From positions 1 through 64,000 of the forward strand of contig NZ_JAEHJZ010000018.1 of the NCBI RefSeq assembly GCF_016469035.1: DNA of 64,000 bases, in the 5' to 3' direction. Positions 23,101-47,263 of the stretch are shown piece by piece (position 1 is the first letter of the stretch; the number at the start of each line of letters is the position of its first letter). A program made the translations under genes and the position numbers. Under the pieces are notes generated by a model. That model was not told where the DNA came from. It did no database searches and saw only the letters and a program-made list of their open reading frames with translations. The DNA is from Gelidibacter salicanalis (GTDB taxonomy: Bacteria; Bacteroidota; Bacteroidia; Flavobacteriales; Flavobacteriaceae).

Positions 23101-23131
23101 TTTGATAATGCAACAGAAATATCTATATTTG
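23101..23131 (+). promoter_or_regulatory. Promoter of the PL6-PL7 operon
   Basis: TTTG (23101-23104), exactly 19 nt, then TATATTTG (23124-23131), a perfect Bacteroidota promoter. Its last two bases overlap the tandem operator, so a bound regulator would cover the transcription start. The leader before the PL6 ATG is about 135 nt. Confidence 0.85.
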
Positions 23132-23152
23132 GTAAACCAATCTGGTAAACCA
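23130..23152 (+). promoter_or_regulatory. Tandem FadR-type operator, copy 1
   Basis: TGGTAAACCA at 23130-23139 and again at 23143-23152, separated by ATC. Each copy has TGGT..ACCA half sites, like the TGGTNNNACCA sites of FadR-subfamily GntR regulators. The identical double site occurs at 30174 and 35460, and a single related site before the GntR gene. Confidence 0.8.
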
Positions 23153-23270
23153 ATTTAGATTTATGTGATATCATCCAAATGTCCTTTTGAAAATTATTTT
23201 AAAACGGGTAATTATCTAGTCACAACAGATGCTAATGCTTTTGCTGAGGTGAAATATTATAATTTGAACT

Positions 23271-25574
23271 ATGAAAAAACTCATATCCGTTGCATTCTGC
23301 CTTTGTATACTTTTTGGATGCGAAAAACCCGTTACGACAAACTCAATTAATGTTAATGATATTGCAGCTTTAACCCAAGCGATTAAAGACTGCAAACCGG
23401 GGGATGATATTATCATGGCCAATGGTATTTGGAAAGACGTCCAAATCGAGTTTTTAGGAAATGGCACCAAAGACAAGCCAATCATTTTAAGAGCGGAAAC
23501 GCCTGGGAAAGTTACGATTGAAGGTGCGTCCAATCTAAAGCTAGGAGGTAGTTACTTGATTGTAAAGAACCTTTATTTTAAAAATGGTCATACCCCCACC
23601 AAAAATGTCATTCAATTCAAAATTGATGAAAAAACCGTCGCAATGCACTGCAAAGTGACCAATTGCGTTATTGAAGAATTTACCCAACCCAATCGCGATG
23701 ATACGGACCATTGGGTGGAATTTTGGGGCAGACATAACGAGTTGAGTAATTGCTATATTGCCGGGAAATCAAATTTTGGGCCTACAATTAGGGTGCGATT
23801 AGATGGCAACGAAAATGTTAAGAATTACCATAAAATCATCAACAACCATTTTGGACCAAGACCTCGTAAAGGTGGGCCACATGGAGAGACTTTACAAATA
23901 GGTGACAGTGGAACATCCATGACACCATCGCATACCATTGTTCACAATAATTTATTTGATCGTTGCAATGGCGAAGTTGAAATTATTTCAAGTAAATCTA
24001 ACTTTAACGTGTTTACCAGTAATGTGTTTTTTGAGAGTGAAGGCTCGTTGGTGTTGCGTCATGGAAACTATGCTAAAATCGATGGCAACGTTTTTATCGG
24101 AAATGACAATTCAGAATTTATTGGTGGCATCCGGGTCATAAATACCGGACATTGGATTACGAATAACTATTTCTACAAGCTAAAAGGTTTAACATTTAGA
24201 GCGCCTTTGGCAGTAATGAACGGCATTCCGAAATCTCCTTTAAATCGATATAATCAGGTTACTGATGTCGTTGTGGCATACAACACTTATATCGATTGCA
24301 TATCGCCATTTCAATTTGGTGTTGGTTCTAATGTCAGTCAAAGCGAAGTATTGCCAAAATCTGAAATCCGTTCTGCCAGAGCCGAACGCATGATTCTTGC
24401 CAACAACTTAATTTACAACCAGAATCCAGATAATTATCCAATTGTGGCCCATGATTCTGTGGATGGTGTTCTGTTTGAAAAGAATATTTTGAATAGTGAA
24501 AATAAAAGCGGAGTCACTTCGGGTGGTCTTATCAGAAAAGATTTTAAGATGAAGAAATTAACCGATAATCTATTCGTGCCTATCGAGAATTTTGAAGATG
24601 TCTATCGAGGATTTGATTTCGAAACGATCAAAACAGATTTTTTCGGAACTGAAAGAAGTAAGCAAAACGCAGTCGGTGCCATGATAGTTCCCGTTAAAAA
24701 TAGACCTGTTTTAATCGACAAAAAAAAATATGGAGCCGATTGGTTCGAAACAGAAAAGGAAGCTTACAAACCACAAACACTCCAAGTTTCTAATGCTGAT
24801 GAACTTAAAGTTCAACTATCAAAAGCAAATTCTGGTGATATTTTGGCTTTAAAATCTGGAGTTTATACGATTGATAAAAAACTAATCATTAATAAAAACA
24901 TCACAATTACTTCATTAGATATCAACACAAAAGCTGAATTGCAGTTCACTTCTGATAGTATCGCATTTGAAATGCAACCGAAAGCAAGACTTCAAATAAA
25001 TGAGGTCATTTTGAAAGGGAATGGCAACCAAGATGCATTTGCAACCTTGGATAAAAACATGACCAAAGCATACGATTTATTTTTGGAAAATGTAGAATTG
25101 GATAATTTTAACAGCGTGCTAAGAGTCTCTAAAGGTTCTTTTGCAGATACAATTTCTGTGGTTAATTCAGTTATCAAAAACTGCAATCGTGGTTTCCTTT
25201 TGAATAAAGAAATAAATGATGGTGGCGATTATAATGCCGAATTTGTGATCATTAAGAACACTGAATTTACCGATATCAAAGAAACCATTCTCGATTATTA
25301 CCGTGGCGGTTATGACGAGTCGACCATTGGTGGGAATTTAGTGTTTCAGAACAACACCGTTACCAATTCTGGAAAGCTGGAATCAGACCAAATTCTCATA
25401 AAAAACAGGGGCATCGTGAATGTCGATTTTTCTAATAACACATTTAAAAACAATCCTGTAAAACTGATTGCCGTGCTTTGGGGCGAGAAAGACCAAAAAC
25501 CTGTGGATAATACCATTGAAAATTCAGGAAAGATTGAAGTGGTTCAAAACTTGAAACTTAAATTAATGTATTAA
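23271..25574 (+). CDS. Alginate lyase, polysaccharide lyase family 6 (lipoprotein)
   Basis: A 767-residue two-domain PL6 enzyme. A lipoprotein signal ends at Cys17 (LFGC). The N-terminal parallel beta-helix (about 28-420) holds the Lys242 and Arg263 pair in ISSKSNFN and LVLRHGNYAK; their 21-residue spacing equals that of the catalytic Lys/Arg of characterised PL6 AlyGC. A second beta-helix region (about 500-760) follows. It cleaves alginate by beta-elimination, probably at the cell surface. First gene of a unit with PL7 (27 nt gap), the gluconokinase fusion and an Nramp-like transporter, under the operator at 23130. Confidence 0.93.
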   Translation: MKKLISVAFCLCILFGCEKPVTTNSINVNDIAALTQAIKDCKPGDDIIMANGIWKDVQIEFLGNGTKDKPIILRAETPGKVTIEGASNLKLGGSYLIVKNLYFKNGHTPTKNVIQFKIDEKTVAMHCKVTNCVIEEFTQPNRDDTDHWVEFWGRHNELSNCYIAGKSNFGPTIRVRLDGNENVKNYHKIINNHFGPRPRKGGPHGETLQIGDSGTSMTPSHTIVHNNLFDRCNGEVEIISSKSNFNVFTSNVFFESEGSLVLRHGNYAKIDGNVFIGNDNSEFIGGIRVINTGHWITNNYFYKLKGLTFRAPLAVMNGIPKSPLNRYNQVTDVVVAYNTYIDCISPFQFGVGSNVSQSEVLPKSEIRSARAERMILANNLIYNQNPDNYPIVAHDSVDGVLFEKNILNSENKSGVTSGGLIRKDFKMKKLTDNLFVPIENFEDVYRGFDFETIKTDFFGTERSKQNAVGAMIVPVKNRPVLIDKKKYGADWFETEKEAYKPQTLQVSNADELKVQLSKANSGDILALKSGVYTIDKKLIINKNITITSLDINTKAELQFTSDSIAFEMQPKARLQINEVILKGNGNQDAFATLDKNMTKAYDLFLENVELDNFNSVLRVSKGSFADTISVVNSVIKNCNRGFLLNKEINDGGDYNAEFVIIKNTEFTDIKETILDYYRGGYDESTIGGNLVFQNNTVTNSGKLESDQILIKNRGIVNVDFSNNTFKNNPVKLIAVLWGEKDQKPVDNTIENSGKIEVVQNLKLKLMY

Positions 25575-25601
25575 TAGTTCTCTTATAAAACCAATTTATA
25601 A

Positions 25602-26651
25602 ATGAAAAAAATAGTATATACCGTAGTCACACTTTTAACAATTGTTGCTTGCAAAAATAAATCAAAAACGACCTTAGACGCAACCACTAAAAGCAAAACT
25701 GAAAATGTAACAAAATATCCAAGTGATGTTCTTCCATTTTTAAATGAATGGAGTATTCTTTGTGGAGATGGCACGCACTCTGACGAATTAGTAAATTTTG
25801 AACACAAAGATTTTTTTTATGTTGAAAATGATGCAAACACTAATTGGGTAGTCTATAAAACACCGAACTCTGGAATTACCTCACAAAATTCGAGCAATAC
25901 CAGGACAGAATTAGGACAAAGAGAGAAATGGACACCAGAAGAAGGTGGTAAATTAACTGGCACATTAAAAGTGATGCATGTGTCAACTTCCGGTGATGCT
26001 AGAGTTGCTGCTTCATACTCGGTAGTTGTTGGACAAATTCATGGTAAGGAAGGTCACGAAAACGAACCTTTAAAAATATTTTATAAAAAATTCCCTGGAC
26101 ATACCAAAGGGGCTGTGTATTGGAATTACGAAATCAATACTGAAGGTGATAATTCGGGAAGATGGGATTTCTCAACAGCAGTTTGGGGGTATGATATGTC
26201 CTTAATTGGGACAAGTCCTGATACCGCTCCTCCAGAACCTGAAGACGGGATTGCTTTAGGCGAAGAATTCAGTTATGAAATAAACGTTTACGAAGGTGTT
26301 ATGTATCTGACGTTTACAAGTGACGGTCATGAAACTAAAACGTTTACAAAAAATTTATTAAAATCAGACTTTGCAACAAAAGAAGCTATTCCTCAACAAA
26401 TATGGACTTTATATGCCTCTATAGGTCGTGACGGCATTGAACGCAAAAATGCCTATGCTGGGGAGACGCAAAATTTCAAACAAGGTGCTTATAACCAAAC
26501 CAACGGAAAGAATCCTGAAGATAATATGGTGTGGAGTACTGGGTCAGAAACTTATGATGGCGATATCGCCAAACAATATGCAAATGGAGATTATGCCGAA
26601 GTATGGTTTAAGGAAGCGACCGTAGGCGAAGGTACAGCTCCTAACAAATAA
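25602..26651 (+). CDS. Alginate lyase, polysaccharide lyase family 7 (lipoprotein)
   Basis: A 349-residue PL7 enzyme with a lipobox at Cys17 (TIVAC) and a short polar linker. The jelly-roll domain carries the three family motifs: RTELGQ (101-106), QIH (145-147) and NFKQGAYNQ (291-299). In this family QIH usually goes with activity on polyguluronate or mixed MG stretches and QVH with polymannuronate, so guluronate-rich blocks are the likely target. Second gene of the first alginate operon. Confidence 0.93.
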   Translation: MKKIVYTVVTLLTIVACKNKSKTTLDATTKSKTENVTKYPSDVLPFLNEWSILCGDGTHSDELVNFEHKDFFYVENDANTNWVVYKTPNSGITSQNSSNTRTELGQREKWTPEEGGKLTGTLKVMHVSTSGDARVAASYSVVVGQIHGKEGHENEPLKIFYKKFPGHTKGAVYWNYEINTEGDNSGRWDFSTAVWGYDMSLIGTSPDTAPPEPEDGIALGEEFSYEINVYEGVMYLTFTSDGHETKTFTKNLLKSDFATKEAIPQQIWTLYASIGRDGIERKNAYAGETQNFKQGAYNQTNGKNPEDNMVWSTGSETYDGDIAKQYANGDYAEVWFKEATVGEGTAPNK

Positions 26652-26662
26652 AATAGAAAACA

Positions 26663-28546
26663 TTGAAGAAAGTCATATTTATCATTGGGGTTTCTGGTGT
26701 TGGAAAAAGCACCATAGGTCAATTATTGGCAAAGGAGTTGAACATTCCTTTTTTCGATGGAGATGATTATCATCCCAAAGAAAATATTGCTAAAATGTCT
26801 AATGGACAGCCATTGAACGACGCCGATAGAGCAGGTTGGTTGGCTATTTTAAATCAGTTGGCAAAGGACCAAATAAAAAATAATAGTTGTGTTATTGTCT
26901 GTTCAGCTTTAAAACAAAGCTATCGAGACCTCTTAAATTCCGGTTTGGAAAAGAACTACAAATGGGTGTATTTGTCGGGTAGTTTTAAACAAATCATTAA
27001 AAGAATGAAAGCTCGCGACAATCATTTTATGCCCGCAAAATTATTACAATCTCAATTTGACATCTTAGAAAAACCTAAAAATGCCATTGAAGTTGATATC
27101 CGTTTAACGCCAAAAGAAATAGTGAAAAAAGTGAAAGATGCATTAGATCATAAATCGGAATTTGGACTCTTCGGCCTTGGAGTCATGGGGAAAAGTTTGA
27201 GTCGGAATTTAGCCAAAAAAGGGTTTAAGATTTCCATTTTCAATAGAGAACTAAAAGGAACTGAAGAAAATGTTGCCATCAATTTCAAGCATGAATTTCA
27301 AGAATTATCGTCAGCACTTCCATTTAACAACATTGAATCTTTTGTAAACTCTTTGGAAGTCCCACGTAAGATAATGCTTATGGTCAATGCAGGTAAAATT
27401 ACCGATATGGTAATTAAAGATTTGATGCCGTTTCTATCGGCAGGCGATATTTTAATTGATGGAGGTAATTCAAATTATAATGAAACAAAAGAACGGTTCG
27501 ATTATTTAAAATCAAAAGGTATTCATTTTGTAGGCGCTGGTGTTTCAGGCGGCGAAGAAGGCGCATTGAATGGACCATCCATTATGCCTGGTGGCGATAA
27601 AGAAAGTTATAAAGCTGTTCATCCATTTTTAGAAGCCATAGCGGCAAAAGATGAAAACGGTTTACCATGTTGTACTTATATAGGAACTGAAGGTAGTGGA
27701 CATTTCGTGAAAATGGTTCATAATGGCATTGAGTATGTAGAAATGCAATTATTGGCAGAAGTGTTTACGATGCTACAAGCATTGGGAAATAATCCTGACC
27801 AAATTGCTGATATTTTAGAATCGTGGAAAGCGCATAGCAATAGTTACTTGTTAGAAATCACTATTGATATTTTGAGGAAAAAAGAAGGCGATGATTGGTT
27901 GGTAAATAAAATTATGGACAAAGCTGGCAATAAAGGTACAGGCAACTGGACAACTATTGCAACAGCTCAATTGGGAGTACCAAGTACCATGATAGCGTCC
28001 GCTTTGTTTGCTCGTTATTCCTCATTTTATAAGGAAGAACGAATAGTTGCAAGTGGAAATTTTCAATCCAATGAAAGTTCTAAATTCGATGTGACGAATG
28101 ATGAAATTCTAAAAGTATACCAATTTGGGCGGTTGATAAACCATTATCAAGGTTTTAAATTAATAGATGAAGCTTCAAAAAGCTATAAATGGGATTTAAA
28201 TTTGAGTGAACTGTCACGAATCTGGACAAATGGCTGCATCATCAAATCTGACCTGATGGTTGAATTGGTAACGGTATTCAAATCAACCAACAACATGTTG
28301 ACCAATGAGCACATCATCCAACAGATAAAAAAATCAAAACCAGCCGTTAAAAAAGTAGTTTCCCAATGTGTTTTAAATGATTTGCCAATTCCAACCTTAA
28401 GCGAGTCTGTTAATTTCCTAAACAATTTCGCCATAGCAAAGTCATCTGCAAATTTAATACAAGCACAACGCGATTATTTTGGAGCACATACCTTTCAACG
28501 ATTGGATGATGATTCTGGAAAATTCTACCATAGTACTTGGAAATAA
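26663..28546 (+). CDS. Gluconokinase / 6-phosphogluconate dehydrogenase fusion protein
   Basis: A 627-residue fusion. Residues 1-160 are a GntK-type gluconokinase: P-loop GVSGVGKST (9-17), DGDDYHPKENIAKMSNGQPL and NDADRAGWL. Residues 166-627 are a full-length decarboxylating 6-phosphogluconate dehydrogenase: GLGVMG (171-176), GVSGGEEGAL, catalytic Lys in GSGHFVKMVHNGIEY, and the end LIQAQRDYFGAHTFQR. It should turn gluconate into ribulose-5-phosphate, CO2 and NADPH. The start is TTG at 26663, since a TAG stop lies three codons upstream and no ATG is available. It lies 11 nt after PL7, so it is co-transcribed with alginate lyases. Both halves keep their catalytic residues. Confidence 0.92.
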   Translation: MKKVIFIIGVSGVGKSTIGQLLAKELNIPFFDGDDYHPKENIAKMSNGQPLNDADRAGWLAILNQLAKDQIKNNSCVIVCSALKQSYRDLLNSGLEKNYKWVYLSGSFKQIIKRMKARDNHFMPAKLLQSQFDILEKPKNAIEVDIRLTPKEIVKKVKDALDHKSEFGLFGLGVMGKSLSRNLAKKGFKISIFNRELKGTEENVAINFKHEFQELSSALPFNNIESFVNSLEVPRKIMLMVNAGKITDMVIKDLMPFLSAGDILIDGGNSNYNETKERFDYLKSKGIHFVGAGVSGGEEGALNGPSIMPGGDKESYKAVHPFLEAIAAKDENGLPCCTYIGTEGSGHFVKMVHNGIEYVEMQLLAEVFTMLQALGNNPDQIADILESWKAHSNSYLLEITIDILRKKEGDDWLVNKIMDKAGNKGTGNWTTIATAQLGVPSTMIASALFARYSSFYKEERIVASGNFQSNESSKFDVTNDEILKVYQFGRLINHYQGFKLIDEASKSYKWDLNLSELSRIWTNGCIIKSDLMVELVTVFKSTNNMLTNEHIIQQIKKSKPAVKKVVSQCVLNDLPIPTLSESVNFLNNFAIAKSSANLIQAQRDYFGAHTFQRLDDDSGKFYHSTWK

Positions 28547-28571
28547 AGAACTAAACTAAAACCACCACACC

Positions 28572-29846
28572 ATGCCAACATCCGAAAATAAAAAGTCCTT
28601 ACTTAAAAAATTTATCGCGATTATTTTGGGCTTTGGTCCTGGAATTTTTGCCATTGGTTATACCATAGGCACAGGTAGCGTAACGGCAATGATTGTTGCC
28701 GGAAGCAAATTTGGAATGCAGTTATTATGGGTGCTATTATTGAGTTGTTTATTTTCAGGAGTTTTAATGTTTGCCTATGGTAATTATGCTTTGATTACTG
28801 GCGAAACGGCGCTCTACGGATTTAAAAAGCATTTAAAGTTTGGTAAGGTTTTAGCCCTTTTAATTATCGTAGGGATCACTTTTGGACAATGGAATTCCCT
28901 GATGGGTATTTTAGGCATTTCAGCCAATATTATTTTTGAAATATTAGCGGCAAATTTTGAAGGCTTGATTCCCTATAAATATGAAACGGTTTTAATTACA
29001 GCCATTATCATCATCGTTATTTTCTACTTGCTAATGCTCGTGGGAAAATATACGTTTTTCGAAAAGATTCTGGTCATATTCGTAACACTTATGGGTTTGT
29101 CATTCGTTCTTTCATTATGTTTTGTACAGCCACTTCCGGCAGATGTCATTCAAGGGTTAATACCTACCATTCCAGATGTGCCTGGTGGTAAAATGTTAGT
29201 TGCTGCTTTTGTTGGGACTACGATGGCCTCGGCTACATTTTTGTCGCGACCTCTTTTTGTAAAAGGAAAAGGATGGACTATAAAAAATTTAGGTCAGCAA
29301 AAAAAAGATTCTATAACCGCTGCTATTTTAATATTCTTAATAAGTGCTACCATAATGGCAGTGGCAGCAGGTGCGTTGTTTCACCAAGGAAAAGTGGTTA
29401 CTCAAGTACTCGATATGGCAAATACTTTAGAGCCAGTTGCGGGTAAATGGGCAGTTTCTATTTTCTTTTTCGGAGCGTTAAGCGCTGGTTTATCCTCTAT
29501 TTTTCCTTGTTTATTGATAGCGCCATTATTGGTCGCTGATTATCAGTCGGGAGTTTTGGATACCAACTCGAGACAGTTTAGAATTATTACGGCCATCGCC
29601 TGTTTAGTGGCGTTAATTGGACCTGCTTTTGGAGCAAACCCAATTGAAGTCCAAATTTTGTCACAAGTATTTAATGTGTTTGTCTTGCCGATTGTTATTC
29701 TTGGAATCATATTAATGGTAAATAGTAAGAAAATAATGCAAGGCTATAAAACGGGTGTTTTTGTCAATATTGGGCTGTACGCGTCACTTCTTTTTGCATG
29801 TATCATTTCGTACAATGGGGTATTGGCATTAATGGATTATTTTTAA
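28572..29846 (+). CDS. Nramp-fold transporter lacking the usual metal ligands
   Basis: A 424-residue inner-membrane protein with about 11 helices and the LeuT-type Nramp layout (GFGPGIFAIGYTIGTGSVTA, then MQLLWVLLLSCLFSGVLM). In true Mn/Fe transporters helix 1 has DPGN and helix 6 MPHN. Here the aligned parts read IGTG and MASA, so the Asp and Asn metal ligands are absent. The substrate is therefore probably not a divalent metal. A place behind a gluconokinase fusion in an alginate operon suggests a sugar acid or related solute; that is inference. Last gene of the first alginate operon. Confidence 0.75.
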   Translation: MPTSENKKSLLKKFIAIILGFGPGIFAIGYTIGTGSVTAMIVAGSKFGMQLLWVLLLSCLFSGVLMFAYGNYALITGETALYGFKKHLKFGKVLALLIIVGITFGQWNSLMGILGISANIIFEILAANFEGLIPYKYETVLITAIIIIVIFYLLMLVGKYTFFEKILVIFVTLMGLSFVLSLCFVQPLPADVIQGLIPTIPDVPGGKMLVAAFVGTTMASATFLSRPLFVKGKGWTIKNLGQQKKDSITAAILIFLISATIMAVAAGALFHQGKVVTQVLDMANTLEPVAGKWAVSIFFFGALSAGLSSIFPCLLIAPLLVADYQSGVLDTNSRQFRIITAIACLVALIGPAFGANPIEVQILSQVFNVFVLPIVILGIILMVNSKKIMQGYKTGVFVNIGLYASLLFACIISYNGVLALMDYF

Positions 29847-29881
29847 ACATCCTCTTCATTAAAAATCATATTGTTGCAATA

Positions 29882-29985
29882 GAGGACGCTCCGATGGGGC
29901 TTAAGAGTCATGATGAGGTTATCTACTACAAGGACTACGCTCCTCTGGAACTGAAAAATCCGTAGGTATGTCATCTTAGTAATAT
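29882..29985. repeat. Two degenerate copies of an intergenic repeat
   Basis: Two diverged units of about 50 nt follow each other, both beginning ACGCTCC (29884 and 29938) and sharing the pattern CTCC, TGG, CTTAA or CTGAA, and GTTATC or GTCATC. They occupy the space between the Nramp-like gene and the second PL6 promoter. A 77-codon minus-strand frame here is not convincing as a gene. Confidence 0.4.
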
Positions 29986-30145
29986 GAATTATCAGATAAA
30001 ATAAAGGCAAGAGGCGACGCTTTGAGATGGCAGCTATGGACGACATTTTAAAATTTGTTTTTAGTTTAATTTTCAAAATGTTTAATTGAGCAGTAGTATT
30101 TGATAATCAATTGAATATAGATTTATGTTAAATGTCTATATATTT

Positions 30146-30176
30146 TTTGGATAACACCAAAAATCGAGTATATTGG
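30146..30176 (+). promoter_or_regulatory. Promoter of the second PL6 operon
   Basis: TTTG (30146-30149), 19 nt, then TATATTGG (30169-30176), one base off the TAnnTTTG consensus. Its end overlaps the operator at 30174 in the same way as the first PL6 promoter. Confidence 0.7.
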
Positions 30177-30196
30177 TAAACCAATCTGGTAAACCA
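30174..30196 (+). promoter_or_regulatory. Tandem FadR-type operator, copy 2
   Basis: TGGTAAACCA at 30174-30183 and 30187-30196 with ATC between, identical to copy 1. It ends only 5 nt before the first ATG of the PL6 gene. Confidence 0.8.
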
Positions 30197-30201
30197 GTTT
30201 A

Positions 30202-32544: not shown

Positions 32545-32547
32545 AGC

Positions 32548-34815
32548 ATGTTTATAAAAAACAACATCCTACTGATTTTTCTGGTTCTAGCTATGGCGAC
32601 GTCTCCTAGCCATGCACAATCAAAATCACTGTCTAAAGGAAAGAAATCAAATTCAAAAGAACATCCAAATTTGATTCTGACAAAAAAGGGTGTTTCTGAA
32701 ATAAGGTCAGCATTGGGAACGATTCCAATTTTTGATGCGTCTTTAGCAGAAACTAAAGCAGAAGTTGACGCCGAGATTGCTTTAGGAATAGAGACACCCA
32801 TTCCAGTAGATTATTCCGGTGGTTACACACATGAACGTCACAAACAAAATTTCTTAATCTTACAAAAAGCAGGAGTTTTATATCAAATTCTGGATGACGA
32901 AAAATATGCGAAGTATGTCAAAGATATGTTGATGCAATATGAGGAAATGTACAAAACATTACCATTGCATCCAAAACCAAGATCGTATGCGAGAGGTAAA
33001 TTGTTCTGGCAGTGTTTGAACGATTCTAATTGGTTGGTCTATGTGAGTCAAGCGTACGATTGTATTTATAATTATTTAACGGAAAAAGAACGGAACAAAC
33101 TAGAAAAAAATCTTTTTAGACCATTTGCCGATTTTATTTCTGTAGGAAATCCGCAATTTTACAACAGAGTGCACAACCATAGTACTTGGGGGAATGCCGC
33201 TGTTGGAATGATTGGTTTGGTCATGGATGATGAAGAATTAATACAACGTGCTTTATATGGGATTAAAGGTCTTGAAATAGACAAAACCGCTAAAGATGAT
33301 GATGGAGGCTATATCAATAAAGATGGAAAAGCTGGTTTTTTGGCTAATGTAGAACAACCGTTTTCACCTGATGGGTATTATACTGAAGGACCCTATTATC
33401 AAAGATATGCGATGTATCCATTTTTGATATTTGCTGAAGGCTTGCAAAATGTAAGACCAGACTTAAAGATTTTTGAATTTAAAGATGGTGTGCTTTTAAA
33501 ATCTGTAAATGCATTATTAACTTTATCTGATGCAGATGGGGAGTTTTTTCCGCTAAATGATGGTCAAAAAGGGATGTCTTATTATTCTAGAGAACTAGTG
33601 ACAGCGGTAGATATAGCCTATCATTATGGAAATCGGGATCTTGGTTTATTAAGTATCGCAAAACAACAAGATAAAGTGTTGTTAGATGATTCCGGATTTT
33701 CTGTAGCACTGGGTATCAAAAATGGAAACGAAAAACCGTTCGTTAAGAAATCAATTAATTTATCCGATGGTGCTGATGGGTCAGAAGGTGGTGTTGCAAT
33801 ATTAAGAAATGAAGACCTAGAACTTGTTTTTAAGTATGCTGCACAAGGATCCAGTCATGGGCATTATGATAAATTATCATTTTCCTTATACGAAAAAGGC
33901 GAAGAAATCATTCAAGATTACGGATTGGCGCGCTTTGTAAATATCGAACAAAAAGGTGGAGGAAACTATTTAAAAGAAAACAAAACTTGGGCAAAACAAA
34001 CCATTGCTCATAATACAGTAACACAAAATGAAACCTCTCATTTTAATGCAAAATATGATATAGGAAGTCAATATCATTCCGTTTTAAATTATTTTTCTTT
34101 TGAAAATGAAAACGTTCAGGTTGTAAGTGCAAAAGAAGCAAACGCATATCCTGGAACAGAAATGCTTCGCACAATGGTGCTAATTAAAGACGAAGATTTC
34201 GAAAAACCATATCTGTTGGATATTATGAAGGTAACATCCAATGAAGCCAATCAATACGATTTTCCGTATTATTTTATGGGTCAATTACTTAAAACCAATT
34301 TTAAGTACAACACACCAGAAACTCTAAAAGCTTTGGGAACTGATAATGGATATCAACATTTATATCTTGAAGGTTCTACAAAGGCAGAAAGTGAAAACAG
34401 TAAGTTGTCATGGTTAAATGAAGGTAAATTCTACACCCTGACTTCTGTTACCAATACGGGCGACGAAATAGTATTCACAAGAATCGGAGCAAACGATCCA
34501 GAATTTAATCTGCGACGTGATGCAGCATTAATGTTGAGACGCAAAGACACCAAAAACACACTTTTTGTTTCAGCCATTGAAGCACATGGCGGTTATAGCC
34601 CAGTGTCTGAATTCGCTGTAAACTCTAACAGTAGTATCACAGACTTAAAAGTGATTTTAGAAACAGAAGATTACACGGCAATTGCAATAACCAATGTCAA
34701 CGGAAACACAAAACTATTTATAACGGCTAATACAAACGCTTCAAAAGAAGCAACACATAACTTAAAAATCAATGATAATAATTACCAATGGTCAGGTGCT
34801 TATTATTTCAAATAA
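32548..34815 (+). CDS. Oligoalginate lyase, polysaccharide lyase family 17
   Basis: A 755-residue exo-lyase releasing unsaturated monouronate from alginate oligomers. Signal peptide to about residue 24 (SPSHAQ). An N-terminal alpha/alpha-toroid domain (about 40-390) includes QFYNRVHNHSTWGN, with the Asn210-His211 pair, and DGYYTEGPYYQRYAMYP with candidate catalytic Tyr. A C-terminal heparinase II/III-like beta-sandwich (about 400-700; SSHGHYDKLSFSLYEKGEEI) completes it. It has no lipobox, so it probably acts in the periplasm. Co-transcribed with PL6 (3 nt gap), followed 110 nt later by kdgF. Confidence 0.94.
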   Translation: MFIKNNILLIFLVLAMATSPSHAQSKSLSKGKKSNSKEHPNLILTKKGVSEIRSALGTIPIFDASLAETKAEVDAEIALGIETPIPVDYSGGYTHERHKQNFLILQKAGVLYQILDDEKYAKYVKDMLMQYEEMYKTLPLHPKPRSYARGKLFWQCLNDSNWLVYVSQAYDCIYNYLTEKERNKLEKNLFRPFADFISVGNPQFYNRVHNHSTWGNAAVGMIGLVMDDEELIQRALYGIKGLEIDKTAKDDDGGYINKDGKAGFLANVEQPFSPDGYYTEGPYYQRYAMYPFLIFAEGLQNVRPDLKIFEFKDGVLLKSVNALLTLSDADGEFFPLNDGQKGMSYYSRELVTAVDIAYHYGNRDLGLLSIAKQQDKVLLDDSGFSVALGIKNGNEKPFVKKSINLSDGADGSEGGVAILRNEDLELVFKYAAQGSSHGHYDKLSFSLYEKGEEIIQDYGLARFVNIEQKGGGNYLKENKTWAKQTIAHNTVTQNETSHFNAKYDIGSQYHSVLNYFSFENENVQVVSAKEANAYPGTEMLRTMVLIKDEDFEKPYLLDIMKVTSNEANQYDFPYYFMGQLLKTNFKYNTPETLKALGTDNGYQHLYLEGSTKAESENSKLSWLNEGKFYTLTSVTNTGDEIVFTRIGANDPEFNLRRDAALMLRRKDTKNTLFVSAIEAHGGYSPVSEFAVNSNSSITDLKVILETEDYTAIAITNVNGNTKLFITANTNASKEATHNLKINDNNYQWSGAYYFK

Positions 34816-34925
34816 AAACAAATTAATTAAAAATTATGAAACGAGCTAGTTCGAAATTTCATCATTCATCGGAATGGTTTATAGCGAACAGCATATGACC
34901 ATTAAAAAATAATAAATATAAACAT

Positions 34926-35300
34926 ATGAAAAGATTTAGCGAAAAGTACGTCATCACAAAAGAAATACAATGGGAAGAACTTGGCGGAGGAGTATCAAGA
35001 AAGTTCTTAGGTTACGATAACCAAATCATGATGGTAAAAGTAAAATTTGAGAAAGGAGCATTAGGTGCCCCACATCAACATTTTCACACGCAAGCTACCT
35101 ATTGTGTTTCAGGTAAATTTGAATTTGAAATTAATGGAGAAAAGAAAATTGTAGAAGCAGGAGATGGAGTATATATTGAACCTAATTTATTGCATAGTGC
35201 AGTTTGTTTGGAAGAAGGGATGCTAATTGACACATTTAGTCCTGTAAGAGAAGATTTCTTAAGTGGAGGTAAGGTATCTTATTTTGGAGATAAACAGTGA
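34926..35300 (+). CDS. kdgF: KdgF-type cupin, unsaturated uronate linearisation
   Basis: A 124-residue single-domain cupin without a signal peptide. Metal-binding residues are visible in APHQHFHTQATYCVSGKF (His50, His52, Gln56) and at His90 (NLLHSA), as in KdgF, which speeds ring opening of 4,5-unsaturated uronate toward 4-deoxy-5-keto-hexoseulose uronate (DEH). Its place right after PL17, which makes that substrate, supports the call. The 110-nt gap before it contains no clear promoter. Confidence 0.88.
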   Translation: MKRFSEKYVITKEIQWEELGGGVSRKFLGYDNQIMMVKVKFEKGALGAPHQHFHTQATYCVSGKFEFEINGEKKIVEAGDGVYIEPNLLHSAVCLEEGMLIDTFSPVREDFLSGGKVSYFGDKQ

Positions 35301-35430
35301 TAAGAAAAAAACTGATAGTCCTATCCGTGAAGACCTTATGAAATAGTAATAAAACTCTTACAGGCTGATTACACATTTGCTATATTAACCTAAACATTTA
35401 CTTTTTTAACATATATAATTTACGAAAACG

Positions 35431-35461
35431 TTGTAATTAACAATTATTTAATATATATTTG
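35431..35461 (+). promoter_or_regulatory. Promoter of the susCD operon
   Basis: TTG (35431-35433), 20 nt, then TATATTTG (35454-35461). The -7 box is identical to that of the first PL6 operon and overlaps the operator in the same way; the -33 element is weaker. Confidence 0.7.
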
Positions 35462-35482
35462 GTAAACCAATCTGGTAAACCA
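35460..35482 (+). promoter_or_regulatory. Tandem FadR-type operator, copy 3
   Basis: TGGTAAACCA at 35460-35469 and 35473-35482 with ATC between, identical to copies 1 and 2. Confidence 0.8.
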
Positions 35483-35513
35483 ATTTTATCAGGTTGATTT
35501 TAAGGCATAAAAA

Positions 35514-35539
35514 AAAGGACAGGTGCACGCCTATCCTTT
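35514..35539 (+). promoter_or_regulatory. Hairpin in the long susC leader
   Basis: AAAGGA, a one-base mismatch and AGG pair with CCT and TCCTTT around a TGCACG loop, about 30 nt into the roughly 230-nt leader of susC. Further small hairpins follow (ACTTC / GAAGT; GTACAA / TTGTAC). An attenuator or mRNA-stability element is possible. The loop motif TGCACGC also occurs in the MFS gene leader at 41229. Confidence 0.45.
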
Positions 35540-35700
35540 CTAAATAAATACTTCTTTGGAGGGAAGTAGTTTTATGACATGTCAACTTTATGATGACACG
35601 CTTGGCAAAAGTACAAAAATTATTGTACTATGTCCGTGTTTTGATAGAGTGAATTAGCGTGGTTTATCCATATACACTTTAAACAAAAACAAAACGAATT

Positions 35701-38700
35701 ATGAATCCAAAAATTAAATTGACATTGTTGCTTTTTGCGATATTCAATGTCTCGCTATTTGCTCAGGATGGCTTTACGCTGAAAGGTACCGTTGTTTCCG
35801 GTGCTGATTCTCAGCCAATACCAGGAGTAAATGTTCTTATTAAAAACACCACCAGAGGAACCAGTACTGACTTTGACGGCGCCTACCAAATAGAGGTGAC
35901 GTCCGGAGATGTGTTGAGTTTTTCTTATGTAGGGTACACAACTCAAGAAATTACTGTTACAAATCAAAGTGAGTTAAACGTGTCATTGGCTGAAGATGCT
36001 GCCAAATTAGATGAAGTAGTCGTTGTAGGTTACGGTACTCGAAAAAAATCACATCTTACTGGAGCGATAGCTAAAATAGGAGGAGATGAGGTTGCAGCAG
36101 TACAGGCTGCGCGTGTGGATGAAGCATTGGCAGGGAAACTACCTGGAGTTAACATTCAAAATCAGAGTGGGGAACCTGGTTCAGATTTAAAGATTCAAAT
36201 TAGATCAGGGTCATCACTTTCGAGTAATTCAGATCCGCTAATTGTTGTTGATGGGTTTCCAATTTCAGGAAATTTAGCAACGGTTAATCCTAACGATATA
36301 GAAAGCTTGGAAGTATTAAAAGATGCTGCTTCTGCTGCCATTTATGGTTCTTTGGGTGCAAATGGTGTTATCTTGGTGACTACTAAAAAAGGGAAATCAG
36401 GTAAACTTAATTTTAGTTATAATGCCTACACAAGTATTTCAAGAAAGTATGTAAAAGATATTGAAATGCTTAAGACTGCTGGAGAGTGGGCAGAAGATTT
36501 ACAATCAGGGGCTTATGATCTTACTCAAACTGATCCACGATTGTTACAATATAGATTGGATGCCTATGCAAATGCACCAGATGTAGTTAGTATGGAAGAT
36601 TGGCTTTTTAAGTCAGGGAGCAGTACGAGCCACGATTTTAGTATGAGTGGTGGATCAGACAATATAAAAGCGTTTGCTTCAATTGGATATTTAGATACTG
36701 AAGGTATTGTTAAAGGGCAAGGTTACGAAAGATATAATGGACGTGTGAATATTGATGCTACTTTAAATGATAAATTTAAGGCAGGAATCAGTATGAATGG
36801 ATTTTATGGTAATCAGGATATTGTACCATGGGAAATGAGGGATCTTTTAAGAGCGTATAGTATTAGTCCTATATACCATACACAAGCGTCTATTGATTTT
36901 GTTCAACAATTGGATATTAAAAGACAAGCATTATTCAATTCAGGGTATACAGCAAACAATTTCGGTCGCTCTTTTGACCAAGACTATAGAGGCGATAAAT
37001 CTTTAGGTTTAGATCCACAAAGCATCTATGATTTGCAACCAGGTGACGTTGTTCACGATTGGCAGTATGGTAGAAATCTTAATGGTATTGGAGGAACAGG
37101 TGATGCAGGTGTAGGTGCCAAATTCGACAATTCAAAAAGGTATAAGAAAACCCTTTATGGAAATGTTAGCACTTACGTACAATACGAAATTTTAGATGGT
37201 TTAAATGTAAAAACCATTTTTGGGGCAGATTCACGTGATGTGAATGAGTACTACTATCGTGGTATATTAACAGATGGTCAACAACGTTCCAATCAAACTG
37301 ATTTGGACATATCAAATATCAAAAAATCTACCATATTAAGTACCACTACTTTAGATTATGCAAAAGTGATTGCTGATAAGCATGATATCTCCGCTGTTAT
37401 TGGTTTGGAGTTTGTAAACACTAAGTTTAATGGATTGTCATCGCTTGGATCAAATGTGCAAGTTGGCTTGCCTTTAAACTACTCTTATTTTGGGGCTGAA
37501 GACGTTATTTCTCGCAGAATTGAAGAAAAGCAGGCTAGAAGAGGTGTTTTTGGACGGTTAGCTTATGCGTTTGATGATCGTTATTTAGTATCGGCTTCCA
37601 TTAGAAGAGATGGGGATTCACGTTTTGGAGCAAATGAGAGATACGCCGTATTTCCAGCAGTATCTATAGGTTGGAATATTCATAATGAATCATTTTTAGA
37701 AGATAACAATGTTATAAGTCTTTTAAAGCCCAGATTTAGTATGGGTTCTTTGGGGACGTCTTCAGATTTAGGATCATACAGTGCCTTAAGTATTTTAGGT
37801 ACTACGCCAACTGCTTTTGGACCAGGGTTCTTAATCCCGGATGATGTTGCAAATCCGGATTTAACCTGGCAAACGAACAAGGAAACTAACTACGGTCTTG
37901 ATACAGGATTTTTAAATAATCGATACAGATTTAGTGTAGATTATTATACTTCGGATGTTGAGGATATGTTGATTAATCAAAGTGTTTCCGAGGTTCTTGG
38001 TACACCTCAAGTGAGACTTAACCGTGGTGATATTACAAGTTCTGGTCTAGAGTTTGAGCTAAATGCAAATATTATACAAAACGATGGTTTTTCTTGGAGT
38101 GTGAGTGCTAATTTATCTACGGTTAATTCAGAAATCACTAGCCTAGGTGATTTAGATGAATTACCTCGTCAAATTTACGGTGGACCCGCAGATAGAGGTG
38201 CTGAGTTTAGAAATTATGTTGGCGGAGAACTTGGTGAAATGTGGGGCTATGAAAGCGCAGGCCAAGTTGAGTCCATATACATTGCAGATCCAACTAGAAA
38301 TGTTGGATATGGAAGTGGCGTTCATTATGTGGTAGATCAAAATGGAGATGGTGAAATTACTTACGAGGATGATTATGTTAAATTAGGATCAGCAACTCCA
38401 GATTTTTATTGGGGATTGTCAAGTAATTTAAACTATAAAGCTTTTGATTTATCATTTCAATTCCAAGGATCGCAAGGAGCGGAAGTATATAATATTGATC
38501 CAATTTACTGGCAATCATTATTCCGCGACGCTACAGGACCAAATTTTGATGCTAATAATGATGGCATTGCTGATGCTAACGGTCTACATTATTTAGAATC
38601 AAGAAACGTACATGGCGGATTTGTTCAAGACGCCTCTTACGTTGCATTAAGAAATATTACTTTAGGGTATACACTTGATTCAGATTTCATCAGTAAAGCC

Positions 38701-38895
38701 GGTATTGGTTCTATGAGAGTTTATCTTGCCGCTACTAATTTATTATATATCATGGGTAAAGACTACACATCATTTAACCCTGAAGGTATAGAGACCGAAA
38801 ATAATGGTTATGCGGGTCCAACAACTTATGGATATCAAGAAGGTGCGAGCCCGATTGTTAGAAGTTTTACGTTTGGCCTTAATGTTAATTTTTAA
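35701..38895 (+). CDS. susC: SusC-type TonB-dependent receptor for alginate oligosaccharides
   Basis: A 1,064-residue outer-membrane importer. Signal peptide to about residue 21 (SLFAQ), a carboxypeptidase-regulatory-like domain (about 24-105; LKGTVVSGADSQPIPGVNVL), the SusC plug signature VVVGYGTRKKSHLTGAIAKI (about 107-126), and a 22-strand-type barrel ending in FTFGLNVNF. It works with the SusD protein whose gene starts 11 nt later. Placement among four alginate lyases and the shared operator make alginate oligomers the likely cargo. Confidence 0.95.
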   Translation: MNPKIKLTLLLFAIFNVSLFAQDGFTLKGTVVSGADSQPIPGVNVLIKNTTRGTSTDFDGAYQIEVTSGDVLSFSYVGYTTQEITVTNQSELNVSLAEDAAKLDEVVVVGYGTRKKSHLTGAIAKIGGDEVAAVQAARVDEALAGKLPGVNIQNQSGEPGSDLKIQIRSGSSLSSNSDPLIVVDGFPISGNLATVNPNDIESLEVLKDAASAAIYGSLGANGVILVTTKKGKSGKLNFSYNAYTSISRKYVKDIEMLKTAGEWAEDLQSGAYDLTQTDPRLLQYRLDAYANAPDVVSMEDWLFKSGSSTSHDFSMSGGSDNIKAFASIGYLDTEGIVKGQGYERYNGRVNIDATLNDKFKAGISMNGFYGNQDIVPWEMRDLLRAYSISPIYHTQASIDFVQQLDIKRQALFNSGYTANNFGRSFDQDYRGDKSLGLDPQSIYDLQPGDVVHDWQYGRNLNGIGGTGDAGVGAKFDNSKRYKKTLYGNVSTYVQYEILDGLNVKTIFGADSRDVNEYYYRGILTDGQQRSNQTDLDISNIKKSTILSTTTLDYAKVIADKHDISAVIGLEFVNTKFNGLSSLGSNVQVGLPLNYSYFGAEDVISRRIEEKQARRGVFGRLAYAFDDRYLVSASIRRDGDSRFGANERYAVFPAVSIGWNIHNESFLEDNNVISLLKPRFSMGSLGTSSDLGSYSALSILGTTPTAFGPGFLIPDDVANPDLTWQTNKETNYGLDTGFLNNRYRFSVDYYTSDVEDMLINQSVSEVLGTPQVRLNRGDITSSGLEFELNANIIQNDGFSWSVSANLSTVNSEITSLGDLDELPRQIYGGPADRGAEFRNYVGGELGEMWGYESAGQVESIYIADPTRNVGYGSGVHYVVDQNGDGEITYEDDYVKLGSATPDFYWGLSSNLNYKAFDLSFQFQGSQGAEVYNIDPIYWQSLFRDATGPNFDANNDGIADANGLHYLESRNVHGGFVQDASYVALRNITLGYTLDSDFISKAGIGSMRVYLAATNLLYIMGKDYTSFNPEGIETENNGYAGPTTYGYQEGASPIVRSFTFGLNVNF

Positions 38896-38906
38896 TTGAG
38901 AAACAG

Positions 38907-40244
38907 ATGAAAAATATAAGATTTATATACGTAGCAATAGTGTCCTTTGTGCTGGTAACAGCGTGCGACAATGATTTGGATCAATCACCTGCTTTAGATT
39001 TGGAAGCAAGTAATATAGAGGATTATGCACCCGTTTTGAATGCAGCATATTACTATCATACTGGGGTTGCAATGCCACAATTGGTTATGGGCGATTTTAG
39101 AGCTGACAATATGTTAATGATTGAAAGCCCGTTTACCACAATGGATACGTATAATGCGGATTTAGAAGGAGGGGATATGTCTGGAGCATTTTTTAGCCCG
39201 GTTTATAGTAATTTGTACAAGTCAATTTTAAGTGCAAATAATGTTATTGATAATTCAATGAACGCTACGCAAGTAGCTGAGGCTAAATTTTTAAGAGCTT
39301 TATCTTACTTCAAGCTTGTATTGGTTTTTGGTGATGTTACAATTAATTTATCACCTTCACCAAGCATCTCCGATACTTCAATTTTAGTGAGACAGCCAGC
39401 GAATGACGTTTATAATGACGTAATTATTCCTGACTTTAAAGACGCCATAGCCGGTTTAACTAATTCTGGATTAGCATCTGGGCGCGCATCTCAAATTGCT
39501 GCACGAGCATTTCTTGGTAAAGTATATATGCACAGAGGTGATTATACTAGTGGGGTAACAGAGTTTGCAGCTGTTGTAAACGGAGCTGCTGCTGCAGGGA
39601 TAACCTTAGAAGCCGATTTTGCAAACGTTGTAACGGATGTAAGTTCAGAAATTATATTTGCTACTCAAATTGCAGCTTCTATTCCAAATGCAGATGGTTC
39701 TACTTCTGCTTCTACGTTCGTAGGATGGTTTGGTGGCGCTGATACAAAAACGCTTACCCCTTTAGATCCACGCTTAACTGCTGCTTTTGATGCTAGTAGT
39801 GCTGCTGGTGGAGGTCCAGATTTAAGAAAAGCACTATCTATTGATGTGGCTAATAGAAGAGGTGTGAAATATACAGGAGGTCTTGATCAGGACTTTATAG
39901 AAATGAGATTATCAGATGTGATTCTATTGTATGCAGAAGCACTTAATGAAACTGGCACGCCTGCAGCAACTGTACTTACTTTATTAGATCCAATAAGAAT
40001 GAGAGCAGGTTTAAATAGTTTAACGGGCACCGCAACGACTCAAGCTGATGTTAGAACAGCTATTGCTAATGAAAGAAGAGTAGAGTTAGCCATGGAAGGT
40101 CACAGATGGTTTGATTTGGTGAGAACTGGTGCAGTTGATGCTGCAATGGGTGAAACAGTTAATAGTAATTATTATGTGTTTCCAATTCCAAATTCAGAAA
40201 TTCTTGCAACTAATGGGGTAATTACACAAAATCCTGGTTACTAG
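38907..40244 (+). CDS. susD: SusD/RagB-type surface glycan-binding lipoprotein
   Basis: A 445-residue lipoprotein (lipobox at VTAC, Cys20) with the all-helical SusD fold. Typical segments are EAKFLRALSYFKLVLVFGDV (TPR-like), ASQIAARAFLGKVYMHRGDY and the C-terminal ERRVELAMEGHRWFDLVRTG. It caps the SusC barrel and hands over oligosaccharides. It forms an operon with susC and ends in a strong hairpin at 40369. Confidence 0.95.
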   Translation: MKNIRFIYVAIVSFVLVTACDNDLDQSPALDLEASNIEDYAPVLNAAYYYHTGVAMPQLVMGDFRADNMLMIESPFTTMDTYNADLEGGDMSGAFFSPVYSNLYKSILSANNVIDNSMNATQVAEAKFLRALSYFKLVLVFGDVTINLSPSPSISDTSILVRQPANDVYNDVIIPDFKDAIAGLTNSGLASGRASQIAARAFLGKVYMHRGDYTSGVTEFAAVVNGAAAAGITLEADFANVVTDVSSEIIFATQIAASIPNADGSTSASTFVGWFGGADTKTLTPLDPRLTAAFDASSAAGGGPDLRKALSIDVANRRGVKYTGGLDQDFIEMRLSDVILLYAEALNETGTPAATVLTLLDPIRMRAGLNSLTGTATTQADVRTAIANERRVELAMEGHRWFDLVRTGAVDAAMGETVNSNYYVFPIPNSEILATNGVITQNPGY

Positions 40245-40368
40245 AGTCAAGTCAGCTCATAAAAACGCGTGATTATTTTCACTCGAAAGATAAAGGTGCT
40301 TTTGTCAAAGTGAACTATTACGGATTAAAAGTAAATCATTAGATTATTTGAGTTAGTCCAAATTAATG

Positions 40369-40417
40369 CCTTTGTTGAGTTTTACTGATCTTTATAGATT
40401 AGTAAAACTAGCAAAGG
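40369..40417 (+). terminator. Long hairpin after susD
   Basis: Stems CCTTTG / CAAAGG and AGTTTTACT / AGTAAAACT, with a small internal loop between them and a 14-nt apical part that can pair further. It lies 125 nt after susD and 88 nt before the regulator gene. It is followed by A-rich then T-rich sequence, so it probably ends or processes the susCD mRNA. Confidence 0.6.
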
Positions 40418-40458
40418 AAAAAAAATTAAAGTTTTTTTAAAATTTTTAACAGCCATTC

Positions 40459-40468
40459 TGGTTAACCA
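40459..40468 (+). promoter_or_regulatory. Single FadR-type operator before the regulator gene
   Basis: TGGTTAACCA is a perfect 10-bp palindrome of the same TGGT..ACCA type as the tandem sites, just upstream of a TAATTTTG -7 box (40475-40482). It suggests autoregulation, with one site rather than two. Confidence 0.65.
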
Positions 40469-40504
40469 ATTGTGTAATTTTGATTAAATCATTAAAATTA
40501 GTAT

Positions 40505-41206: not shown

Positions 41207-41228
41207 AAAATTAGAATGAAAGTATAAA

Positions 41229-42698: not shown

Positions 42699-42728
42699 CA
42701 TAATTATAAATTTAAAAAATTATTAAAG

Positions 42729-43493: not shown

Positions 43494-43518
43494 TATTACA
43501 ATTTTAATAAAAGAAGAA

Positions 43519-44274: not shown

Positions 44275-44305
44275 ATTATGATTATAGTTCATAAAAGTAA
44301 GAAAT

Positions 44306-45328: not shown

Positions 45329-45361
45329 GTGATTATCATCTTCTTTTGTAACAAATAGCAA

Positions 45362-46588: not shown

Positions 46589-46589
46589 A

Positions 46590-47258: not shown

Positions 47259-47263
47259 TACTC

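What the first reader, a model, noticed from the sequence alone, without database searches (positions are those of the whole stretch)
23101..40482. One tandem operator overlaps or abuts three promoters of the alginate locus, with a single variant before the regulator gene
Two TGGTAAACCA palindromes separated by ATC occur, base for base, at 23130, 30174 and 35460. In each case the site overlaps the end of the -7 box and a TTTG or TTG lies 19-20 nt further upstream. A single perfect palindrome TGGTTAACCA lies at 40459, just before the FadR-type gene's own -7 box. The half sites TGGT and ACCA fit FadR-subfamily GntR regulators. This predicts a repressor with a 13-bp-phased double site, so two dimers on roughly adjacent turns, and weaker single-site autoregulation. 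No such site precedes the MFS-SDR-kdgK operon, so transport and catabolism may be under separate control.
Basis: partly seen in the sequence, partly recalled or inferred. Interest (0 to 1): 0.75.

Follow-up and report, generated by a model that had tools for sequence, protein, structure and literature searches.

The report
Alginate repressor sites plus RNA element
The repeated DNA sites are landing pads for a known type of alginate-sensing repressor in marine bacteria, and two of the messages behind them also carry a shared hairpin RNA element, not in the RNA library searched, that looks like a second layer of control.

Summary
TGGTAAACCAATCTGGTAAACCA lies base for base at 23130, 30174 and 35460, and TGGTTAACCA at 40459; shuffles give none of the double site. 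It is ordinary in kind: the operator array of an AusR-type GntR/FCD alginate repressor, described in print for Zobellia as single, double or triple operators. Of 299 family genomes, 69 have the double site, 74 the regulator, 68 both. The pitch is almost always 13 bp. The -7 box overlaps the first palindrome in 74 of 77 arrays. Unexpectedly, the susC leader (35510-35571) and the regulator/MFS junction (41215-41271) carry the same RNA element: a hairpin with loop UGCAC(G/A), then GRAGGG. The junction hairpin covaries at all 11 pairs. A model trained on junction copies finds the susC copy and nothing else in the 5.16 Mb genome at E <= 1. No Rfam family fits. It is absent where MFS has its own double operator (7 Polaribacter loci). 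Its function (post-initiation control) is inferred.

The parts
23130..23152 (+). Tandem operator 1 (13-bp pitch) before the PL6-PL7-gluconokinase/6PGD-Nramp genes; overlaps -7 box 23124-23131, TTG at 23102
30174..30196 (+). Tandem operator 2 before PL6-PL17; overlaps an imperfect -7 box (GTATATTG, 30168-30175), TTG at 30147; candidate start codons at 30202, 30214 and 30217
35460..35482 (+). Tandem operator 3 before susC-susD; overlaps -7 box 35454-35461, TTG at 35431
40459..40468 (+). Single operator before the regulator gene, downstream of its probable -7 region
40438..40451 (+). Probable -7 region of the regulator gene (TAAAATTTTTAACA; consensus of relatives TAAaTTTAaca)
   Evidence: inferred from relatives
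40505..41206 (+). GntR/FCD repressor gene (AusR-type), 233 aa; D151, H155, H200, H222 invariant in 80 of 80
35510..35571 (+). RNA element, susC-leader copy: hairpin 1 (arms 35514-35523 and 35530-35539, loop UGCACG 35524-35529), then hairpin 2 (35549-35568) with GGAGGG in its loop
41215..41271 (+). RNA element, gntR/MFS junction copy: hairpin with arms 41217-41227 / 41236-41246 around UGCACG (41229-41234), then GGAGGG at 41258-41263
23271..29846 (+). Genes behind operator 1: chondroitinase B family (PL6, label recalled), alginate lyase 2 (PL7, recalled), gluconokinase-6PGD fusion, Nramp transporter
30202..35300 (+). Genes behind operator 2: chondroitinase B family (PL6), heparinase/alginate lyase (PL17-like, recalled), cupin (KdgF-like, recalled)
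35701..40244 (+). susC and susD
41397..47569 (+). Catabolic genes behind the RNA element: MFS, two SDR, PfkB kinase, phosphofructokinase, KDPG aldolase, shortened LacI
35422..35435 (+). LacI-like box ACGAAAACGTTGTA over the -33 TTG of susC
   Evidence: motif class recalled

Best explanation
The sites are the operators of an AusR-type alginate repressor, the GntR/FCD protein at 40505-41206. Dimers bind TGGTNNACCA palindromes stacked at a 13-bp pitch. At the lyase and susCD promoters the first palindrome overlaps the -7 box, so binding should block RNA polymerase. One palindrome just downstream of the regulator's own promoter gives autoregulation. An alginate breakdown product would release the repressor. 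On top of this, the two transcripts that carry uptake and catabolism, susCD and gntR-MFS-SDR-kdgK, hold the same structured RNA element (hairpin loop UGCAC(G/A), then GRAGGG), which most likely controls continuation of transcription or expression after initiation. At the gntR/MFS junction this would let a basal, autoregulated repressor transcript run into the catabolic operon only under a second signal. Shown: the sequences, geometry, co-occurrence, the RNA structure of the junction copy by covariation and its near-restriction to these loci. Inferred: DNA binding by this protein, repression, the effector, read-through and the action of the RNA.
For: Operators: exact triple recurrence; 63 of 79 loci around orthologues hold TGGTNNACCA-N3-TGGTNNACCA; pair spacings up to 80 bp in those loci only 13 (95), 26 (8), 39 (2); in 40 genomes (of the 68 with regulator and double site) 106 of 112 pairs with a 0-30 nt gap have the 13-bp pitch; co-occurrence with the regulator: both 68, site only 1, regulator only 6, neither 224; TAnnTTTG overlaps the array in 74 of 77, TTG 19 nt upstream in 37. 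Print: AusR binds promoters through single, double or triple operators, and intermediates inhibit the complex (PMC7874173, passage). RNA: junction hairpin 92.0% of cells paired (shuffled 64.4), 112 cells changed on both sides (28.4), covariation score 0.763 (0.222; slid controls up to 0.246); G-U 40 against A-C 5 (shuffled 57 and 35), which points to RNA of the coding strand; the junction-trained model finds the susC copy (E 0.0023) and nothing else in the own genome at E <= 1; 46 of 73 regulator-bearing genomes match, 0 of 7 without the regulator; no usual promoter between gntR and MFS in 42 of 43; 0 of 7 MFS leaders with a double operator hold it, 44 of 55 long ones without do.
Against: No binding, expression or start-site data. 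Orthology to the Zobellia AusR was not tested because its sequence and paper were not held. Six regulator-bearing genomes lack a perfect double site, and 16 of 79 loci lack one within the fetched stretch. 27 of 73 regulator-bearing genomes gave no element match. The number of junction pairs with a change on both sides (11) is not very unusual by itself (shuffled 8.9; 24 of 500 shuffles reach it). The susC hairpins vary little, so their covariation is modest: 13 double-change cells against 3.3, none in hairpin 2, and no more pair types than shuffles. 17 of 57 loci have lost the susC loop while keeping the hairpins (hairpin 1 judged by eye). No second stem in the MFS leader could be shown; the window's own leader has the lowest helix score of the 39 tried, and its minimum-energy fold breaks the junction hairpin. 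The window's susC hairpin did not pass the terminator scan.
Confidence: 0.8

Rival explanations
1. The hairpins are only structural punctuation: one ends upstream transcripts (kdgF, gntR), the other stabilises mRNA; there is no regulatory read-out.
For: The susC copy is flanked by A and T runs in many relatives (by eye); in 17 of 57 loci the susC hairpins persist after the loop is lost; the junction copy starts 8 nt after the gntR stop codon in the window and usually within about 20 nt in relatives.
Against: Plain terminators do not need a nearly invariant loop UGCAC(G/A) and a separate GRAGGG box, shared by two hairpins with unrelated stems; the junction hairpin is A-U rich without a T run; neither window hairpin passes the terminator scan.
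Confidence: 0.25
2. The RNA element is a metabolite riboswitch for an alginate intermediate (DEH, KDG or KDPG).
For: Two conserved unpaired boxes beside a covarying stem, upstream of transport and catabolism genes of one pathway.
Against: Box variants tend to change in both copies together (sixth base of box 1 agrees in 38 of 41, second base of box 2 in 41 of 41 after hand reading), which fits a shared reader that coevolves better than two independent aptamers; supported independent contrasts are few (3 and 2), so this is weak. The element is small for an aptamer.
Confidence: 0.25
3. The sites are read by a different regulator than the neighbouring GntR protein.
For: 6 genomes have the regulator without a perfect double site.
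Against: Near one-to-one co-occurrence over 299 genomes and a conserved site directly before many gntR genes themselves (47 of 81 within 150 nt).
Confidence: 0.04
4. The palindrome arrays are recent duplications or chance repeats.
For: The three copies are base-identical in the window.
Against: Flanks differ, and relatives keep the array with varied spacers and centres.
Confidence: 0.01

Closest known systems
AusR of Zobellia galactanivorans (alginate repressor, GntR family; Dudek et al. 2020, not held, known here from passages in PMC7874173, PMC8286568 and PMC8073546)
   Same: GntR regulator of alginate genes with SusCD, PL7 and PL17; operators in one, two or more copies at promoters.
   Different: Here arrays of up to four perfect copies and a nearly exclusive 13-bp pitch were counted; whether the paper gives the pitch or site sequence could not be checked. 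No RNA element is mentioned in the passages seen.
UxuR / ExuR uronate repressors of enterobacteria (GntR/FCD)
   Same: Same protein family; similar TGGTNNACCA half-site logic (recalled).
   Different: NCBIfam scores far under the cut-offs: 73 of 442 and 62.4 of 396 bits.
Structured 5' elements without Rfam match in Flavobacteriaceae (PMC9723704, passages)
   Same: Leader RNA structures conserved across genera of the family and without hits in Rfam.
   Different: Those named in the passages as conserved lie before pheA, hisG, ftsY, acsA, alaS, rimP, not before alginate genes.
RfaH/ops and LoaP two-hairpin leader elements (recalled)
   Same: Leader hairpin and short conserved boxes that recruit a specialised elongation factor.
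   Different: No factor identified here; sequences differ from the recalled ops element; not tested.

Membership tests
AusR-type alginate repressor | GntR HTH plus FCD effector domain (GntR family is in the passages; FCD for AusR is recalled) | tested here: met
   PF00392 67.6 bits and PF07729 93 bits, above cut-offs
AusR-type alginate repressor | Gene within an alginate locus with SusCD, PL families and KDG/KDPG catabolism | tested here: met
AusR-type alginate repressor | Operator in single, double or triple copies at several promoters | tested here: met
   feature as reported in PMC7874173
AusR-type alginate repressor | Sequence orthology to Zobellia galactanivorans AusR | not tested
AusR-type alginate repressor | Release from DNA by an alginate intermediate | not testable with these tools
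   needs binding assays
FadR subfamily of GntR regulators | FCD-type C-terminal domain | tested here: met
FadR subfamily of GntR regulators | Number of helices in the C-terminal domain (FadR against VanR group, recalled) | not tested
   structure prediction switched off
FCD metal-binding regulators | Asp/His/His/His ligand set (recalled) | tested here: met
   D151, H155, H200, H222 invariant in 80 of 80; that they are the ligands is recalled, not shown
UxuR / ExuR | Curated NCBIfam score | tested here: not met
Any Rfam family, for the RNA element | Covariance-model match near the curated score | tested here: not met
   no match at E <= 1 over window 23000-48000; in the two leaders at E <= 10 only matches far under the curated scores
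Structured RNA | Compensatory changes in the stem above controls | tested here: met
   junction copy; susC copy modest
Riboswitch | Ligand-dependent structure | not testable with these tools
   needs probing
Intrinsic terminator / attenuator | G+C-rich stem followed by a T run | tested here: not met
   window copies did not pass the scan; many relatives' susC copies look closer to it (by eye, not scanned)

The most novel reading that the evidence does not exclude
The uptake (susCD) and catabolic (gntR-MFS-SDR-kdgK) transcripts of flavobacterial alginate loci are joined in an RNA-level regulon by a structured element that matches no Rfam 15 family. It is read by a trans-acting factor that recognises loop UGCAC(G/A) and the GRAGGG box and coevolves with both copies. 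It gates read-through from the autoregulated repressor gene into the catabolic operon, and is dispensed with wherever MFS gains its own AusR operators or gntR sits directly before MFS in one operon.
Probability: 0.4. Interest if true: 0.78.

Novelty: new variant of a known kind. Interest (0 to 1): 0.55.

Why it matters
Alginate is a main brown-algal polysaccharide and Flavobacteriaceae are named as the major participant in degrading algal polysaccharides (start of abstract of PMC12323373). The DNA-level part extends a known repressor model to many genera with a nearly fixed operator pitch that can be used to find regulons. The RNA element, if functional, would be a post-initiation layer in these polysaccharide loci, with a defined two-copy signature, natural loss variants and a simple reporter test; it also offers a handle for finding its unknown reader.

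Tried and rejected
Kissing of the two RNA loops: GUGCAC is self-complementary, but in L053 both loops read UACACG and lose most of that (pairing judged by eye), so not favoured. A partner sRNA complementary to both boxes: the own-genome search for CCCTCC-N0-30-CGTGCA gave 3 forward and 3 reverse matches against 2 and 4 for the control; two are the elements' own reverse strands, the other four (two of them overlapping) lie elsewhere; not pursued, and other arrangements were not searched. A second stem in the MFS leader: own helix score 6.94 against 6.34 with swapped strands, the window itself 4.5; not claimed. Element hits off the locus: G220 (behind a YidC-like ORF) and G307 (overlapping an flhA-like ORF; both names by eye, no family search) judged chance; G163 and G044 fall inside a long ORF of a stretch without alginate-gene matches; G087 in a stretch without such matches. 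The double site of G154, the one genome with site but no regulator, lies inside a susC-like coding match. Phylogenetic test of joint change of the two copies: never the opposite direction, but only 3 and 2 supported independent pairs (and 3 for joint loss), so not significant. Another TGGAGGGAAGTAA at 18073 (-) before a methylase-family gene was not found by the RNA model. Paper searches that showed no alginate RNA element; only the best 15 of 75, 20 of 255, 12 of 7,105 and 10 of 2,334 papers were listed, and of these I read passages of PMC9723704 only, so this is weak; the library also lacks the AusR paper. Rows dropped: A1 uses 41 of 43 MFS leaders (L028 and L079 fell to the anchor pattern); A2 uses 39 of 61 susC leaders with hairpin 2 (intact loops only); L046, L060, L078, L079 left out of the 57. 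L026 was counted as holding the element because of its model match, not by the pattern. Box 2 of the GAAGGG-type susC copies was misread by the regex and re-read by eye; the variant sets and the genome lists were typed by hand. With the stricter loop rule the table is 39 both, 16 neither, 2 junction only. Searches of many genomes with the RNA model used stricter filters that lose weak matches and scored 68 and 13 candidates per genome in the rows shown; E-values of the model are rough.
Full report
OBSERVATION. The seven perfect TGGTNNACCA of the window are exactly these sites. In the whole 5.16 Mb genome there is no fourth double site, only one match with three mismatches, and single sites are barely above the reversed control genome-wide (97 against 90).

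THE REGULON. By Pfam and NCBIfam the genes behind the sites are: chondroitinase B family (PL6), alginate lyase 2 (PL7), a gluconokinase-6PGD fusion and an Nramp transporter (site 1); a second chondroitinase B family protein, a heparinase/alginate lyase (PL17-like) and a cupin (KdgF-like) (site 2); SusC and SusD (site 3); and the GntR/FCD regulator (single site). The PL numbers and KdgF are my labels. 79 loci around orthologues of the regulator, 73-88% identical, were fetched (the best 80 of 210 relatives were kept); 63 of them hold the double site. In these loci perfect palindromes lie 13, 26 or 39 bp apart (95, 8 and 2 pairs) and at no other spacing up to 80. In 40 genomes, taken from the 68 that hold both regulator and double site, 112 pairs have a gap of 0-30 nt and 106 of them the 13-bp pitch (3 matches for the reversed control). 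Of the six extra pairs, three listed ones span two pitches with a degenerate middle copy, two listed ones are out of phase, and one is not listed. Of 299 genomes of the family, 69 have the double site, 74 the regulator (E <= 1e-30) and 68 both. The one genome with a site but no regulator has it inside a susC-like coding match.

PROMOTER GEOMETRY. Of 77 arrays of two or more copies before susC, lyase or MFS genes, 74 have TAnnTTTG sharing its last two bases with the first palindrome, and a TTG lies exactly 19 nt further up in 37 (7 further TTG at 18, 20 or 21). Many single sites before susC are the one perfect copy of a degenerate triple (by eye). Before gntR, 34 of 41 single sites have a TAnnTTT(A/G) box in the 40 nt upstream (control 4 of 41), most often ending 11 nt before the palindrome, and none of 41 has TAnnTTTG between palindrome and start codon. 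The operator would then sit at the start of the transcript (inference). 34 of 81 gntR genes have no perfect site within 150 nt upstream.

KNOWN KIND. A passage in PMC7874173 states that AusR of Zobellia galactanivorans, of the GntR family, binds promoters through single, double or triple operator copies, and that intermediates of alginate breakdown inhibit the complexes; two other papers agree on the repressor role (passages). The original paper was not held. Gene content and operator style match; sequence orthology was not tested. The residues D151, H155, H200 and H222 are invariant in 80 of 80 orthologues, the set that I recall as the FCD metal ligands. The protein is not a UxuR or ExuR by NCBIfam cut-offs.

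THE RNA ELEMENT. Reading the susC leaders side by side showed a conserved hairpin pair that is not part of the finding. The same loop and box recur between gntR and MFS. The junction copies (A1, 41 sequences) form an 11-bp hairpin around UGCAC(G/A), followed by GRAGGG in nearly all. 92.0% of cells are paired against 64.4% when shuffled, 112 cells changed on both sides against 28.4, and every pair has compensatory changes, though that last count alone is not very unusual (11 against 8.9). G-U pairs (40) far outnumber A-C (5), while shuffling gives 57 and 35: the constraint acts on RNA of the coding strand rather than on a DNA dyad. The susC copies (A2, 39 sequences) are more uniform, with 98.4% of cells paired against 96.7 and 13 double-change cells against 3.3.

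RESTRICTION. A model built from junction copies only finds, in the own genome at E <= 1, the junction copy (1.4e-6) and the susC copy (0.0023) and nothing else (150 of 7,538 first-look candidates were scored). In the 79 loci 88 of its 92 matches at E <= 1 lie at these two places; the other four have E of 0.16 or more (sorted by hand). Of 80 genomes, 46 of the 73 with the regulator match at E <= 0.05 and 0 of the 7 without; two of the 46 (G087, G163) have only an off-locus match. Of 395 genomes across the phylum 7 match at E <= 0.01; two of these (G220, G307) look like chance by their neighbours, and the other five, the own genome included, are of the same family. Both many-genome scans used filters that lose weak matches. 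No Rfam 15 family fits.

HOW THE TWO LAYERS RELATE. Among junction leaders of 120 nt or more, 44 of 55 without a double operator hold the element and 0 of 7 with one do (p 6e-5; but all seven are Polaribacter by their titles, so they may be few events). The 18 shorter leaders lack it. Only 1 of 43 element-bearing loci has a promoter of the usual pattern from the last 150 nt of gntR to MFS, against 40 of 70 in the susC promoter window and 0 of 42 in coding controls; a promoter of another type is not excluded. Presence goes together: of 57 loci (window included) 40 have junction copy and intact susC loop, 16 neither, 1 only the junction copy. Variants are shared: UGCACA in both copies of six loci, UACACG in both of L053, GAAGGG in both of nine, and L042 and L080 share rarer GRAGGG variants. 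Box 1 disagrees in L028, L030 and L080, and box 2 of L030 also differs outside the scored base. On the tree of the regulator these are few independent events and no test reaches significance.

MECHANISM PROPOSED. AusR-type repression at initiation for lyases, susCD and gntR; read-through from gntR into MFS-SDR-kdgK; and an RNA element at both uptake and catabolic transcripts that controls expression after initiation. The first part rests on family knowledge and comparative evidence. For the RNA, that it is structured is well supported; that it regulates, and how, is inference. A shared reader is favoured over a riboswitch because the two copies tend to change together, but the evidence is thin. 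In the window the predicted minimum-energy fold of the junction leader uses the hairpin's 3' arm in a longer-range pairing, which could be an alternative state or a prediction error.

VERDICT. The finding as given is a new member of a known kind (interest about 0.3). With the RNA element the locus is a new variant worth testing (0.55 overall).

Noticed in passing
window 28572-29846; L020, L034, L042, L046, L049, L059, L060, L070, L072, L073, L074, L083: An Nramp metal transporter sits in the alginate regulon: behind operator 1 here, and in 12 of 79 relatives (over 60% identity) after the KDPG aldolase gene, in L049 and L059 behind another Nramp-like gene. PMC6431674 (figure legend) names Nramp in Alteromonas alginolytic systems.
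   Followed up: partly
window 47264-47569; 18 relatives, e.g. L007:14781-15296: The LacI-family gene after the KDPG aldolase is half-size: about 170-179 aa in 17 of 18 relatives (start codons not checked; L005 100, window 101). In three tested the HTH is there and at most the first quarter of the sugar-binding model matches. Here it ends near a short repeat (ACTCCGAGCTTATT, also at 49090).
   Followed up: partly
window 35422-35435: A LacI-like box overlaps the -33 TTG of susC; in 51 scored relatives 10 of 12 with the box and 9 of 39 without carry the LacI gene (p 3e-4, not corrected for kinship).
   Followed up: partly
window 26663-28546: Gluconokinase fused to decarboxylating 6-phosphogluconate dehydrogenase inside an alginate lyase gene cluster.
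   Followed up: no
window 45362-46588: A phosphofructokinase nearest to a PPi-dependent kind, though under the cut-off, lies between the KDG kinase and KDPG aldolase genes; also seen in five relatives.
   Followed up: no
window 20839-21654: Integrase-like gene shortly upstream of the alginate locus, and the two other genomes of the same genus in the sample (G013, G244) lack both regulator and double sites; the locus may be mobile or often lost.
   Followed up: no
L147:3635-4249: In one genome (G102) the operator and susC-leader RNA copy remain but no susC or susD match lies before gntR in the 13.5 kb fetched.
   Followed up: no
window 18073 (-): TTGGAGGGAAGTAA in the leader of a tetrapyrrole-methylase-family gene; not found by the RNA model.
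   Followed up: partly
L049:3851-4549, L080:4818-5516: A second copy of the regulator gene before susC; duplication of AusR is reported in Zobellia (PMC8073546, passage).
   Followed up: no
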